A stretch of 64,000 bases of DNA from Silicimonas sp. (GTDB lineage Bacteria > Pseudomonadota > Alphaproteobacteria > Rhodobacterales > Rhodobacteraceae): the NCBI GenBank assembly GCA_022824315.1, contig JAJEAC010000035.1, positions 1 through 64,000 of the forward strand, read 5' to 3'. Of the stretch, positions 1-4,335 are shown in pieces; position 1 is the stretch's first letter; every line of letters begins with the position of its first letter. The notes under the pieces were generated by a model. That model was not told where the DNA came from. It saw nothing but the letters and a program-made list of their open reading frames with translations, and did no database searches. The translations under genes were made by a program, and so were the position numbers.

Positions 1-30
1 TCCCCTTGAAATCGGTTCCAGAGACCGGAT

Positions 31-201
31 ATGGTGCTCGACAAGGCCATCGGGGTCGCCTCCTTTGGTGGTCTGTTTAGCAACTACACCATACCTTGTG
101 GCGACCCCGGTTGCCAGGCTTGTCCCGGCAAAATCGCCGAACTCGGCGGGAAATTCGCGCGTCCCAGCGAATTTTGCAAAAGGCTCAGAGATTCGGCTTA
201 A
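31..201 (+). CDS. Small Cys-containing hypothetical protein (uncertain)
   Basis: A 56-residue frame, open from position 10 with its first ATG at 31. It carries a C-x4-C-x2-C cluster near residues 23-31 and a further Cys near residue 49, which could bind a metal. It ends 8 bases before the likely start of the following phosphoribosyltransferase. ComF proteins usually carry an N-terminal zinc ribbon, and the next gene lacks one, so this may be a separated or frameshifted equivalent; that is inference. There is no convincing Shine-Dalgarno, and I recognise no family. It may not be a gene. Confidence 0.3.
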   Translation: MVLDKAIGVASFGGLFSNYTIPCGDPGCQACPGKIAELGGKFARPSEFCKRLRDSA

Positions 202-209
202 ACCAAGCG

Positions 210-791
210 ATGCGTAGTCCGACCGTCGTGGGAACCGATGACGTGTCGGCTATCGGCGTTTACCGTTGGGCTGGCGACGCGAACTGCAACGAGCAATGGT
301 CAAAACTGATCCGGAAGTTTAAGAAGGGTGACCCCGCACTGCCGGGATTTTTTGGGCGCATTTTGGCGGAACACGTTCGAGCAATGCCGATGTGCCGGAC
401 GTGGGTCAGCGAATTAGACTACATAGTACCGGTACCCGCAGCGGCATGTCGAAGGTTCGAGAGGGGCTTTGACATCCTGACCCGGACCGCTGAGCACCTA
501 GGCGCAAGGGTTGGGATCCCGCTTCGCACTGATTTTCTTAGACGGTCGGATAGCTCTGTGAGATCGAGATTCGTCGGCAAAGCAGAGCTGGCCCAGCAAT
601 ACTCGTTAGTCGCCCAAAGTGTGGATGACGCGCGGGGGCGAACAGTGTTGCTGCTCGACGATGTAATGAACCGTGGGCACACTGCGGGAGTATGTGCTCT
701 ACGGCTTCGCGAGGCCGGTTGCAGACGGGTTTTCTTGCTCGTGCTTGCGCAGGCAGAGAGTTCGTTCCAGTCTGGACGCCATGCAGACTAA
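210..791 (+). CDS. ComF-like phosphoribosyltransferase
   Basis: A 193-residue type I PRTase of the ComF/amidophosphoribosyltransferase-like group. It has IVPVP at residues 72-76, an RRFERGFD segment like the ComF RGFN motif near 81-88, and a PRPP-binding loop LLDDVMNRGHTA at 148-159, where the usual TTG is NRG. The frame opens earlier at a TTG (96), but ATG 210 gives a normal domain length and starts just after the small upstream frame. ComF itself acts in DNA uptake in naturally competent bacteria. Here the neighbours are a DprA-like protein, a HAD phosphatase and a second PRTase, so I read it as one enzyme of an accessory nucleotide-related module. Substrate unknown. Confidence 0.75.
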   Translation: MRSPTVVGTDDVSAIGVYRWAGDANCNEQWSKLIRKFKKGDPALPGFFGRILAEHVRAMPMCRTWVSELDYIVPVPAAACRRFERGFDILTRTAEHLGARVGIPLRTDFLRRSDSSVRSRFVGKAELAQQYSLVAQSVDDARGRTVLLLDDVMNRGHTAGVCALRLREAGCRRVFLLVLAQAESSFQSGRHAD

Positions 792-908
792 ATGAGAAGT
801 TAAGGAAATACAGAACTGCTCATTTGGTTCTGCCGCGCTAGCAAATCTTCGACGACGGAACTGGTCTGCAAAGATTCGGTTGCTCGACGTCGCAGCAGCG
901 AGGGAGGA

Positions 909-2018
909 ATGACGACACAAAGCATAGAATCACGGTTGAACGAAGCGACTATCAAGGCTTTGGACGGCTGGCGGGCTAGCCGTTCACCAGCTCCATCAAG
1001 GTCAGAAGCCGTAAGGCTGTTACTAGAGGAGCGGTTGCTTAGGGGAAGGAGCGTCGCTGCGGATGCACCGCATCGGAACTCGCACTGCCCCACCGTCGGC
1101 CGACTAGGAGCGATATTCACACTTGAGCGGGTCTCCGGGTTCGGTCCGGTGAAGTTCCGAACCATGTACGAGGCTGGAGTGGATGCGCAGGCAGCAATCG
1201 AGAATCCCGATCTTCTGCCGTTCACGGGGCGCACTGGTGAAAAGCTGCGGGTCGGCATTCTCGACCTTTCAGAGAAAGATTTAGTAGCGGGACGAGAGAG
1301 GGCCGTGGAACAACTCGAGCGCGCCGATGAGCTGTCTGCGACTATACTTGTCCATGGCGATCCAAGATACCCGACGCAGGTGTACGCGAGCAACAATCCG
1401 GTGCCCGTGCTCTATGTGCGCGGCTATCCGAAGATCTGGGATAAAGCGGGCACCGTGGCAATCGTTGGGTCGCGGAGCACACGCGAACCATATGCGAGCG
1501 CCGCCCGGCAGTTTGCAACAGTGGCCGTACATATGGGAATGGTTGTCGTGTCGGGATTTGCAATGGGTGCCGACTCCCTGGGGCACCGCGCAGCCGTGGA
1601 TGCTGGGGGCGGCACAGTGTGTGTGATGCCGTGTGGGCTCGACAAGGTGTTTCCACCGGAGAACCGCGGGTTGTGGGAAGAATTGCTTGCGAATTCGGGA
1701 GCGGTGTTTGTCAGCGAGTTTGGGTTCGGACAGCGAGCGTCGTCACTATTACTCCGAAAAAGGAATAAGCTGATTGTCGCGTTCTCCCAAGGCGTCCTAG
1801 TGGCCCAATCGGCAGTGACTGGCGGAGCGATGAACGCCTACCGCTTTGGTCGGGAGCAGAAAAAGCCGGTCGCGACGTTTAGAACGGATGGGTCAAAGGG
1901 GACGGGAGGCAACGCACTCATAGGAGAAGATGAGCGCACTGGTGGATTCGTCTTTGAGCTAACAAGCAATCTGCAAAGACAAGAAGCATGGCTGCAGCAG
2001 CTGTCATCTTGGATCTAG
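909..2018 (+). CDS. RHH-HhH-DprA/Smf-like SLOG protein
   Basis: 369 residues in three parts. Residues 1-45 look like a ribbon-helix-helix DNA-binding domain (SRSEAVRLLLEERL near 30-43). Residues about 65-105 resemble a helix-hairpin-helix segment. From about 145 there is a DprA/Smf Rossmann domain with GSRST (187-191), SGFAMGADSLGH (215-226), the PCGLDKVFPPEN segment and RKRNKL (283-288). Housekeeping DprA loads RecA on incoming DNA; an N-terminal RHH is not part of it, and the domain belongs to the SLOG nucleotide-binding superfamily. The ATG is 1 base after GGAGG, an unusually short spacing. The 3' end overlaps the HAD gene by 31 bases, so the two are co-transcribed. Lower GC and rare Leu/Arg codons suggest transfer. 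Confidence 0.8.
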   Translation: MTTQSIESRLNEATIKALDGWRASRSPAPSRSEAVRLLLEERLLRGRSVAADAPHRNSHCPTVGRLGAIFTLERVSGFGPVKFRTMYEAGVDAQAAIENPDLLPFTGRTGEKLRVGILDLSEKDLVAGRERAVEQLERADELSATILVHGDPRYPTQVYASNNPVPVLYVRGYPKIWDKAGTVAIVGSRSTREPYASAARQFATVAVHMGMVVVSGFAMGADSLGHRAAVDAGGGTVCVMPCGLDKVFPPENRGLWEELLANSGAVFVSEFGFGQRASSLLLRKRNKLIVAFSQGVLVAQSAVTGGAMNAYRFGREQKKPVATFRTDGSKGTGGNALIGEDERTGGFVFELTSNLQRQEAWLQQLSSWI

Positions 2019-2581
2019 ACGGGACCGTATGGGACAGCCGTCCATGGTTCGCTAATGCTATCGCACGGCTGTCGGGTGGTTTGGCAGTGCAGGTCAAGCG
2101 GGAACTCGATGCGGATGCAAGCATCATACAGGTTATGAAGGATTACGGCGTAAGCAAGTCGCAGTTGGAATGGGTGGCGAGGGAGGATGGCGGTACAATG
2201 CAGCTGTACGAGCAGGTAATTCCGACATTGGATCGCCTTCGGGCAAGAGGAACGCCGTTGGGCATCGTGACGAACTTGCCAGGCTGGATTGTTAGGCCTC
2301 TTCTGGAGGCGACCGGCATTGGCAGCTATGCCGCCGCAATCGCGACGCCACGGGCGGGCATACCCGCGAAACCGAAACCGCATGGGCTACGGTCGGTCTT
2401 GGCTGAACTCAAGCTGGAAGTGGACATGGGGATCTGGTTCGTAGGGGATGGAAATATTGACGCTGCGGCCGCTGAGGCGGCATCAGTACGGTTCGCTTGG
2501 GCATCGTTTGGGTACGGATCAGAGGTGCCTAACAGCACTGACAAGGTGCTGATGAGCTTCGACGAACTGCTCGACTTATGA
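1988..2581 (+). CDS. HAD-superfamily phosphatase
   Basis: A 197-residue haloacid-dehalogenase-type hydrolase with all four motifs: DLDGT (residues 9-13, nucleophile Asp9 and acid Asp11), TN (95-96), KPKPHG (128-133, motif III Lys) and VGDGNIDAA (152-160, metal-binding acids). A helical cap follows motif I. Family members usually dephosphorylate small metabolites such as phosphoglycolate or nucleotides. It begins inside the end of the DprA-like gene and ends in an ATGA overlap with the following PRTase gene, so translation is coupled on both sides. In this setting dephosphorylation of a nucleotide-like product or signal is plausible but not shown. Confidence 0.8.
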   Translation: MAAAAVILDLDGTVWDSRPWFANAIARLSGGLAVQVKRELDADASIIQVMKDYGVSKSQLEWVAREDGGTMQLYEQVIPTLDRLRARGTPLGIVTNLPGWIVRPLLEATGIGSYAAAIATPRAGIPAKPKPHGLRSVLAELKLEVDMGIWFVGDGNIDAAAAEAASVRFAWASFGYGSEVPNSTDKVLMSFDELLDL

Positions 2582-3633
2582 GGTTTCTCTACAAGATACA
2601 CAGTGGCTACGACGGGTTTCGTCCGGCCGTGTTGCCGGATCGGATGCAAGATGGCCGACTGCGGCTTGGATGGCGCCACTACATTGATGTCGTAGAGAAG
2701 GGCTGGGAATGCTGGGTCTATTTTCACGGCCCCCACAAATTTGAGAACGGCGTGTACGCGAAGGGGATCGTTGACGGAATTGACCTAGACAAGGGAGAAG
2801 TCAGTTTACGGGTGCGCGAGTACCTAGCGGATGAGCCGATTACGCCGAAGGGAACTTCCGAGAGGATTGCGGCGGTTGTCGCCACGCGGTACCGTCAAGT
2901 GTTCCTCTGGCCGGACGATTGGACGGTTGCGCCGGAGTGTGAACCTACGGCGTGTGCCAACAGGAAGTGCGGGGACTGCAAGACATGGAATGAGTTGCCA
3001 TTGATCGGACTGGAGGATTCAAAGGTGCCACTGCGTTTGCGGTGGTCCAAGTATGAGGCGGTAGTGCCTGCACACTGGATTGTGCCGAGTCGGTGCTACG
3101 AGCCCCGCATTGGTCCGGACGTCCAGGATCTGACGAGGAGATTTACCGAGTTCAAACTTGGGGAGAGGGCGTACGCGTATCCTTTCGCATTGTCGATATT
3201 TGAGCAATTACGCCGACACGACCTGTTGGAGTTTGACTACATAGTGCCGATTCCGTTATCGCCGGACAAGGCGAAGAACAAGGAGATGCACCGCACCCGC
3301 GAATTGGCTGGGGAACTGGGGCGTTTGCTGGCAGTCAATGTGTGCGAAATGCTAGGACTGTCGGCAAGTATTTCCAAACGGCGCATGATGGCGGCGGGAC
3401 TTACGCCCGCACAATTCGAGAGGCGATACCGCGAAGCGCTGCATGCCGAAGTTCCGGCCGATGCGGGACGGATTTTGCTGGTCGACGATGTAATGACGAG
3501 GGGGAGCACGACGGCGCAGGCTTTAGACGTTTTGCATGAACAGTGTACCGAAGCAAAGATCGTGGTCGCCACGGTTGGCCAAATGGTCGTAAAGGAGGCG
3601 GTCACGGACGATAGGGGGTTTAAGAACAGTTAG
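2578..3633 (+). CDS. EVE/PUA-like + zinc knuckle + phosphoribosyltransferase
   Basis: 351 residues. Residues about 1-110 form a beta-rich domain with the WECWVYFHGPHKFENGVYAKG segment pattern around 43-63 (aromatic cage-like residues, glycines) that resembles EVE/PUA-type readers. Cys121, Cys126, Cys131 and Cys134 then form a likely zinc knuckle. From about 195 there is a ComF-like PRTase domain with IVPIP (222-226), a KRR...RRY segment and PRPP loop ILLVDDVMTRGST (299-311). It overlaps the HAD gene by 4 bases and ends the module. Two PRTases sharing a DDVMxRG loop in one operon suggest paired roles. EVE-like assignment is by pattern only; the PRTase call is firm. Confidence 0.7.
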   Translation: MRFLYKIHSGYDGFRPAVLPDRMQDGRLRLGWRHYIDVVEKGWECWVYFHGPHKFENGVYAKGIVDGIDLDKGEVSLRVREYLADEPITPKGTSERIAAVVATRYRQVFLWPDDWTVAPECEPTACANRKCGDCKTWNELPLIGLEDSKVPLRLRWSKYEAVVPAHWIVPSRCYEPRIGPDVQDLTRRFTEFKLGERAYAYPFALSIFEQLRRHDLLEFDYIVPIPLSPDKAKNKEMHRTRELAGELGRLLAVNVCEMLGLSASISKRRMMAAGLTPAQFERRYREALHAEVPADAGRILLVDDVMTRGSTTAQALDVLHEQCTEAKIVVATVGQMVVKEAVTDDRGFKNS

Positions 3634-4335
3634 GTGCACGTGGCTGACACACAACTACCCGCTCGTCTCCCAGGGCACCCAGCCCACAGAAGCTGCGTCG
3701 CACTTCGGCTAAATGGACTGAATCCTCGTGCTCCGCTGCAGTCGAACTATTGTCCGGCACAAAGGGAATGAGCAGTGCGGGTTAAACAAGTCGACGGACA
3801 TCGGAAGCAAAGAAAGGGATCGACAGGCATTGGGTACACGCCAGCGGAGATACGAAGGGCAGGCCGGGCCGTCAGGGTGGCTGACAGGCTCGTCACTTAG
3901 TCGACGACGGCTAAGCGATGGCTGGACCTCTATACCGCACAGAACCGTGAAAGTGTGAAGTTGACGCTGGTTGAAGGCGAGCACACCGACGTGCCACTCA
4001 GTAGGTTCGAACGAGCCTGGCTTGGCAGCCGACTGAACGAATGTGTCCTGAAAGTTCCCACCATCACCATGATAGGATGCTCAGGCCGCGATTGGCGCGG
4101 ACGGAACTCTGCGCCCGCGCTGTGCTTGCTGCCGACCATGCATTGCTGTGTGATGGAGAACCGATTCAATTTGGAGTTTCGCCAGTTCACCGAGACAATC
4201 CTTGCCTTCGTCAAGGGCACTCATGCTCAGAAGTGGGGAGCAATCATGCATGCCGTCAGCAACAATTTCGCGGCCGTAGTCAGTGAGCAATGCCGGACAA
4301 TTGAGCGGCAGGAGCGAATGATATAGGGAATTGAC
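3634..4335. other. Gene-poor island edge
   Basis: 702 bases between the accessory PRTase module and the TVP38 operon. Apart from the broken frame at 3775-4326 and the 11-bp inverted pair around it, I see no gene, RNA or terminator. Composition changes here from the lower-GC island to the host-like operon, so the right boundary of the transferred segment probably lies in this stretch. Confidence 0.4.
3775..4326 (+). pseudogene. Reading frame interrupted by an amber stop, unknown family
   Basis: From GTG 3775 one frame runs 41 codons to TAG at 3898-3900 and then continues open to TGA-free sequence ending at 4326. The first part reads GYTPAEIRRAGRAVRVADR and the second begins STTAKRWLDLYTAQNRESVK, which together look like one helical, DNA-binding-like N-terminus broken by a single stop. 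The second part alone has an ATG only at 4138-4140 and a GTG at 3955. I do not recognise the family. An inverted pair, ATTGTCCGGCA (3749-3759) and its complement (4291-4301), sits at the edges, so a decayed mobile gene is possible. Confidence 0.3.

What the first reader, a model, noticed from the sequence alone, without database searches (positions are those of the whole stretch)
210..3633. Four-gene PRTase / RHH-DprA / HAD / EVE-PRTase module
Seen: two ComF-like phosphoribosyltransferases, a DprA-like protein and a HAD phosphatase in one tight operon (overlaps of 31 and 4 bases), in lower-GC, rare-codon sequence unlike its neighbours. Known: DprA and LOG domains belong to the SLOG superfamily, which has been linked to nucleotide signals in bacterial conflict; HAD enzymes dephosphorylate nucleotides; PRTases join bases to ribose 5-phosphate. 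Inference: a mobile defence or nucleic-acid surveillance system that makes or senses a nucleotide-like signal. It is not a competence operon, as no com genes accompany it.
Basis: partly seen in the sequence, partly recalled or inferred. Interest (0 to 1): 0.85.

Follow-up and report, generated by a model that had tools for sequence, protein, structure and literature searches.

The report
Four-gene ShosTA-like toxin–antitoxin module
This is a rare, horizontally spread four-gene relative of the known phage-defence toxin–antitoxin system ShosTA, in which the toxin's enzyme parts are split and doubled across separate genes; in this genome one of the genes has lost its front end to a mobile element.

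Summary
The four genes are real, but their best reading is a variant of a known system. The DprA-like gene matches the PADLOC ShosA model (E 1.8e-45). Both phosphoribosyltransferases (PRTases) match ShosT weakly and keep the PRPP motif. The HAD enzyme keeps its catalytic motifs. Two ShosT proteins (phages P24C9 and PfAC02a) are themselves HAD–PRTase fusions beside DprA, and a Rhizobium plasmid carries PRTase–DprA–HAD as three genes, so this combination is an existing ShosTA theme. New is the split four-gene layout: TPR-PRTase, RHH-DprA, HAD, and a PRTase with an unclassified cysteine-bearing N-terminus. It recurs co-linearly in four proteobacterial MAGs; a fifth lacks the first gene. It was otherwise not found in about 1,090 sampled genomes or in the phage, plasmid and viral collections. 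It is absent from all seven congeners; one carries an ordinary ShosTA at the same site, another a TacA-type antitoxin. In this window the first gene is cut at nt 186 by a repeated element, so ATG 210 is not its native start. 'EVE' failed profile tests; 'RHH' is weakly supported. Best guess: PRTase toxin restrained by a DprA antitoxin, with HAD as accessory. Signal production is neither shown nor excluded.

The parts
1..186 (.). End of a repeated (probably mobile) element that truncates P1; also the contig edge
   Evidence: 99% match at G000:C26:1-141 and 84% at C72:23086-23199, all three ending at ...CAAAAGGCTC with different sequence beyond. The C72 copy adjoins a transposase-looking fragment, which has no Pfam hit.
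189..791 (+). P1: ComF/ShosT-like phosphoribosyltransferase, 5'-truncated (lacks the roughly 150-aa TPR N-terminus of relatives). PRPP motif VLLLDDVMNRGHT intact. ORF from ATG 210 is 193 aa.
   Evidence: comF TIGR00201 6.2e-11; PADLOC PsyrT 3.5e-9 and ShosT 8.8e-8; alignment with L008, L009, L010, L012; homology starts at nt 189; 5' part not found elsewhere in G000
909..2018 (+). P2: probable N-terminal ribbon-helix-helix plus DprA (SLOG Rossmann) protein, the candidate antitoxin/sensor
   Evidence: Pfam DNA_processg_A 1.5e-42; PADLOC ShosA 1.8e-45; below the TIGR00732 cut-off, 130 against 191 bits; conserved in six loci
1988..2581 (+). P3: HAD phosphatase (phosphoglycolate phosphatase / PpaX-like), catalytic motifs I-IV present
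   Evidence: PF00702 5e-16; TIGR01449 1.3e-25 and PpaX 2.9e-8, both below cut-off; motifs aligned
2578..3633 (+). P4: roughly 175-aa unclassified N-terminal domain with four invariant Cys (121, 126, 131, 134) plus ComF/ShosT-like PRTase, motif RILLVDDVMTRGST
   Evidence: PADLOC ShosT 1.1e-7; TIGR00201 1.1e-6; invariant columns; AlphaFold confident only for the PRTase
3634..4317 (.). Rest of the strain-specific insertion, no clear gene; the boundary with genus-conserved DNA lies at about 4318
   Evidence: Six congeners match window DNA only from about nt 4318 on

Best explanation
The module is a horizontally acquired toxin-antitoxin / abortive-infection system of the ShosTA kind, in a split and enlarged form. 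Most likely P4 (and P1 where intact) is the ShosT-type toxin: a PRPP-binding phosphoribosyltransferase that disturbs the nucleotide pool. P3, the HAD phosphatase, supplies the hydrolase activity that some ShosT proteins carry as a fused domain, for example removing pyrophosphate or dephosphorylating a product. P2, the DprA-like protein, is the antitoxin and probably the DNA-linked sensor that restrains the PRTases until infection or DNA damage. Shown: the gene content, catalytic motifs, co-conservation, mobility, and the ShosTA at the same site in a sister species. Inferred by analogy: toxicity, neutralisation by DprA, the role of HAD, and the trigger. In this genome P1 is 5'-truncated, so the local copy may work only through DprA-HAD-P4, the same three genes that occur alone in L011.
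For: P2 best PADLOC match is ShosA, 153.6 bits, more than the core-DprA model gives (130.4 bits, below its cut-off). P1 and P4 match ShosT/PsyrT PRTase models. DprA-HAD-P4 is co-linear in 6 of 6 loci, with full-length P1 in 4. Reference ShosT of P2-like phage P24C9 (979.5 bits, 427/427 of PDLC03012) has a HAD-like part plus a PRTase part. PfAC02a has an annotated HAD/PRTase ShosT next to ShosA and Kiwa. A Rhizobium plasmid has PRTase-DprA-HAD as three genes. Rousset et al. report that DprA+PRTase protects E. coli against T7 and lambda (PMC9122126). A review reports ShosT as PRTase plus pyrophosphatase upsetting purine pools, with ShosA as a DNA-binding antitoxin (PMC12593503). RqlH toxicity needs its PRTase domain and is checked by the DprA-like RqlI (PMC4670107). 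Congener G956 has ShosA (4.9e-93) plus a stop-interrupted ShosT at the same site, and G961 a TacA-type antitoxin. Four of five relatives' genomes hold a separate housekeeping DprA. dN/dS is below 0.45 in every pair where dS could be computed.
Against: The DprA tree does not join the module to ShosA: it is its own clade (100/100) on a long branch with its position unresolved. ShosT matches of P1 and P4 are weak (about 30 bits, E about 1e-7). Four genes with two PRTases is not the two-gene ShosTA definition. No toxicity or phage data exist for this variant, and L010 sits among ordinary chromosomal genes.
Confidence: 0.68

Rival explanations
1. Nucleotide-signal system: the PRTases and HAD make a modified nucleotide or nucleoside that the SLOG domain of DprA (or the P4 N-terminus) binds, switching on a response.
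For: SLOG-fold DprA plus PRTases plus HAD; P4 weakly resembles PRTase_2 (PF15609, E 6.6e-4, below cut-off); Ter systems are proposed to use PRTases and HADs for a signal (PMC7824862).
Against: No separate effector (nuclease, membrane or NADase protein) is encoded in the module; close precedents with DprA+PRTase act as toxin-antitoxin through the PRTase.
Confidence: 0.15
2. DNA-repair or nucleobase-salvage cassette: PRTase and HAD enzymes recycle damaged bases while DprA protects or channels ssDNA for recombination; defence is incidental.
For: ComF/GntX-like PRTases and DprA are linked to DNA utilisation; HAD resembles phosphoglycolate phosphatase.
Against: Patchy presence (0 of 7 congeners), defence-type neighbours, a site shared with ShosTA and TacA-type genes, and better DprA match to ShosA than to housekeeping DprA.
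Confidence: 0.1
3. Competence (com) operon remnant.
For: DprA and ComF-like names.
Against: No other com gene in the module; host genomes of four of five relatives carry a separate DprA above the equivalog cut-off; module DprA is below it and has no Pfam hit beyond the Rossmann domain.
Confidence: 0.02

Closest known systems
ShosTA (PADLOC ShosT/ShosA; e.g. phages P24C9, PfAC02a, Mana)
   Same: DprA-like protein next to a PRPP-motif PRTase; a HAD or HAD-like part fused to the PRTase in P24C9 and PfAC02a; carried on mobile DNA
   Different: Four genes, HAD separate, two PRTases, TPR and Cys-bearing N-terminal domains, probable RHH on DprA; DprA forms its own clade
Rhizobium leguminosarum CB782 plasmid PRTase-DprA-HAD cluster (L053)
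   Same: Three separate genes for PRTase, DprA and HAD on one strand
   Different: One PRTase without TPR or Cys domain; different fourth gene; DprA scores higher with the ShosA model (243.7 bits)
PsyrTA / RqlHI
   Same: PRTase toxin domain restrained by a DprA-like partner
   Different: Their PRTase is fused to a RecQ-like helicase; no helicase here
Ter-associated PRTase/HAD biosynthetic genes
   Same: PRTases and a HAD in one operon; weak PRTase_2 match of P4
   Different: DprA present; no other Ter component among the four genes

Membership tests
ShosTA | DprA-like (SLOG) antitoxin distinct from housekeeping DprA | tested here: met
   PADLOC ShosA 1.8e-45; below dprA equivalog cut-off; separate core DprA in four of five relatives' genomes
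ShosTA | Adjacent PRTase with intact PRPP motif matching ShosT | tested here: met
   P1 and P4 match ShosT weakly (8.8e-8, 1.1e-7); motifs present
ShosTA | Two-gene T+A composition | tested here: not met
   Four genes (three in L011) with HAD conserved in all and a second PRTase in most
ShosTA | DprA groups with ShosA in a tree | tested here: inconclusive
   Module is one clade (100/100); its link to ShosA or core is unresolved and branches are long
ShosTA | PRTase is toxic and neutralised by DprA; phage protection | not testable with these tools
   Needs expression and phage challenge
PsyrTA / RqlHI | RecQ-like helicase fused to the PRTase | tested here: not met
   P1 matches only the PRTase end of PsyrT and P4 does not match it; no helicase domain by Pfam
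Housekeeping/competence DprA operon | DprA above the equivalog cut-off, constant core location | tested here: not met
   130 against 191 bits; absent from seven congeners
EVE-domain protein (P4 N-terminus) | Detectable EVE profile match | tested here: not met
   No Pfam hit at E<=10; hhalign probability 0.1 against 23 EVE sequences
Ribbon-helix-helix (P2 N-terminus) | RHH_1 profile match | tested here: inconclusive
   E 0.14 and 0.06, below cut-off but in register; half missing in L008 and L009
Ter system | PRTase_2/HAD together with TerB/C/D or ATP-grasp genes | not tested
   Only a weak PRTase_2 hit for P4; Ter genes were not searched for by profile beyond the module

The most novel reading that the evidence does not exclude
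A multi-enzyme conflict system in which two different PRTases and a HAD phosphatase make or consume a specific nucleotide-type compound under control of an RHH-DprA sensor, with the Cys-bearing N-terminus of P4 as a new nucleic-acid or modified-base recognition domain: a nucleotide-signalling branch that grew out of ShosTA.
Probability: 0.15. Interest if true: 0.75.

Novelty: new variant of a known kind. Interest (0 to 1): 0.42.

Why it matters
It links the separate HAD gene here to the HAD part fused in several ShosT proteins, which suggests that the hydrolase is a functional part of the ShosTA toxin rather than decoration. A form with every activity on its own gene lets each be tested alone. 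It also shows that a current profile-based detector would see only part of such a system.

Tried and rejected
EVE assignment of the P4 N-terminus (AlphaFold models too poor for a fold search). A first EVE comparison used some wrong frames and one search failed; both were replaced. Relatives in viral contigs, plasmids and phages for P4: none; for module DprA in viral contigs: none; phage and plasmid DprA hits were all distant, under 60% identity. The lost 5' part of P1 elsewhere in the genome: only a chance-level hit. The best-scoring phage hit MT835528 looked like a housekeeping dprA next to comM-like and topA-like genes, and Shinella also looked like housekeeping DprA (by eye). No fold search was run because the model of the unknown domain was not trustworthy.

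Full report
What is there. The four genes are present on the + strand with the stated overlaps of 31 and 4 bases. Pfam, NCBIfam and PADLOC give: P1 ComF-like PRTase; P2 DprA; P3 HAD of the phosphoglycolate-phosphatase/PpaX type; P4 ComF-like PRTase behind an unclassified N-terminus. GC is 57% against 62% for the rest of the window, and codon adaptation lies below the range of 35 large reference ORFs.

P1 is broken here. The window begins at the start of contig C171. Its first 186 bases recur in part at two other places in the genome and end at the same point in each. Homology to relatives' P1 begins at nt 189. In relatives P1 is 338-381 aa, counted from the first start codon, with a roughly 150-aa N-terminus matching TPR structures (SPAG1, E 4.8e-7; alignment). 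The missing part was not found elsewhere in the genome. So ATG 210 is not the native start. Whether this is a true insertion or deletion, or an assembly edge at a repeat, cannot be told; the same repeat also lies at a contig edge in C26, which keeps both open.

Conservation. A scan of 84,980 genomes with P4 peptides found five relatives, 62-75% identical, in MAGs labelled Delta-, Gamma- and Alphaproteobacteria. DprA, HAD and P4 are co-linear in all five, with HAD starting inside DprA and P4 starting at the end of HAD. P1 is upstream in four; L011 has none. The scan uses strict peptide patterns, so five is a lower bound. Profile searches of sampled genomes found no other convincing copy: 0 of 288 others in the class, one chance-level partial hit in 397 others of the phylum, 0 of 394 others in the phylum of L008's genome, 0 of 7 congeners. 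No P4 relative was found in plasmids, phages or viral contigs. Where dS could be computed, dN/dS was below 0.45 for all four genes, though dS is near saturation for most pairs; L008-L009 is the usable pair (0.10-0.44).

Mobility and site. Six congeners share the downstream DNA only from about nt 4318. Just before that same boundary G956 carries a ShosA gene (309.7 bits) followed by a ShosT gene with one in-frame stop. G961 carries a TacA1-type antitoxin (PF08681 1.6e-12) there. This makes the site a likely recurrent landing place for toxin-antitoxin genes. Relatives lie near a type I restriction methylase and specificity gene plus DUF4238 (L012), NB-ARC and DUF4145 proteins (L008), a PAPS-reductase-like gene (L009) and a NADAR protein (L011). 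L010 lies among ordinary chromosomal genes. These are single observations, without an enrichment test.

Link to ShosTA. P2 scores 153.6 bits with ShosA and 130.4, below cut-off, with the DprA equivalog. PDB profile hits include a solved ShosA, 9vzo, though housekeeping DprA structures score higher there. A tree of 52 DprA proteins puts the six module proteins in one clade (100/100) outside the sampled housekeeping groups but does not place it with ShosA; branches are long. The stronger link is the combination of parts. P24C9 ShosT spans a HAD-like stretch and a PRTase, PfAC02a ShosT is annotated HAD/PRTase, and a Rhizobium plasmid has PRTase, DprA and HAD as three genes. P24C9's HAD-like stretch lacks the catalytic Asp motif, whereas PfAC02a, the Rhizobium gene and all module HADs examined keep it.

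How it probably works. Published work: DprA+PRTase from a P2-like phage protects against T7 and lambda (PMC9122126); ShosT is described as PRTase and pyrophosphatase that upsets purine pools, with ShosA binding DNA and opposing it (review PMC12593503, citing Pu et al. 2025; the primary paper was not read here); in RqlHI the PRTase is needed for genotoxicity and the DprA-like RqlI restrains it (PMC4670107). By analogy, P4 and P1 are toxins, DprA the antitoxin and sensor, HAD an accessory hydrolase that may remove pyrophosphate or dephosphorylate a product. P1 and P4 PRTases are related to each other (hhalign 96.8%), so P1 looks like a second, dispensable PRTase: absent in L011, truncated here, and with a D-to-E change in the PRPP motif in L008. 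All functional steps are inference.

What failed. The EVE label has no profile support, although a beta-rich N-terminus is not excluded. RHH is only weakly supported. Nucleotide signalling is not excluded but nothing here requires it.

Verdict. A genuine, rare, mobile four-gene variant of the ShosTA kind: a new variant of a known kind, of moderate interest.

Noticed in passing
L078 (G956:C92), reverse strand, 3381-4271 and about 2740-3376: A congener carries a two-gene ShosTA at the same site; its ShosT reading frame has one in-frame stop while the PRPP motif downstream is still readable, i.e. a probably inactivated toxin.
   Followed up: partly
L082 (G961:C145) 2673-3035 +: TacA1-type antitoxin gene at the same site in another congener, so the stretch before the VTT-domain gene looks like a hotspot for toxin-antitoxin genes.
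   Followed up: partly
G000 and its genus: No genome searched of this genus shows a DprA above the equivalog cut-off, unlike other family members; several carry divergent DprA-like proteins of about 300 or 360 aa. Housekeeping DprA may be lost or replaced in the genus.
   Followed up: no
L008 3059-4117 (P1): PRPP motif of P1 reads VLLLEDVV instead of VLLLDDVM, a possible loss of activity; P1 also has the highest dN/dS (0.44) between L008 and L009.
   Followed up: no
L008 4270-4375, L009 6419-6525: DprA lacks the second half of the proposed RHH, so that domain is not essential to the module.
   Followed up: no
L051 1190-1700 (phage P24C9 ShosT): The HAD-like part of this reference ShosT lacks the catalytic Asp motif that the other ShosT-linked HADs keep.
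   Followed up: partly
L008, L009, L010, L012: Isolate codes (RHO, APA, SB) of four of the five relatives look like sponge-microbiome bins (recalled, not checked); exchange within such communities would explain the wide taxonomic spread.
   Followed up: no
window 1-186; G000:C26:1-141; G000:C72:23086-23199: A repeated element end shared by three contigs, next to a transposase-looking fragment in C72 without a Pfam match.
   Followed up: partly
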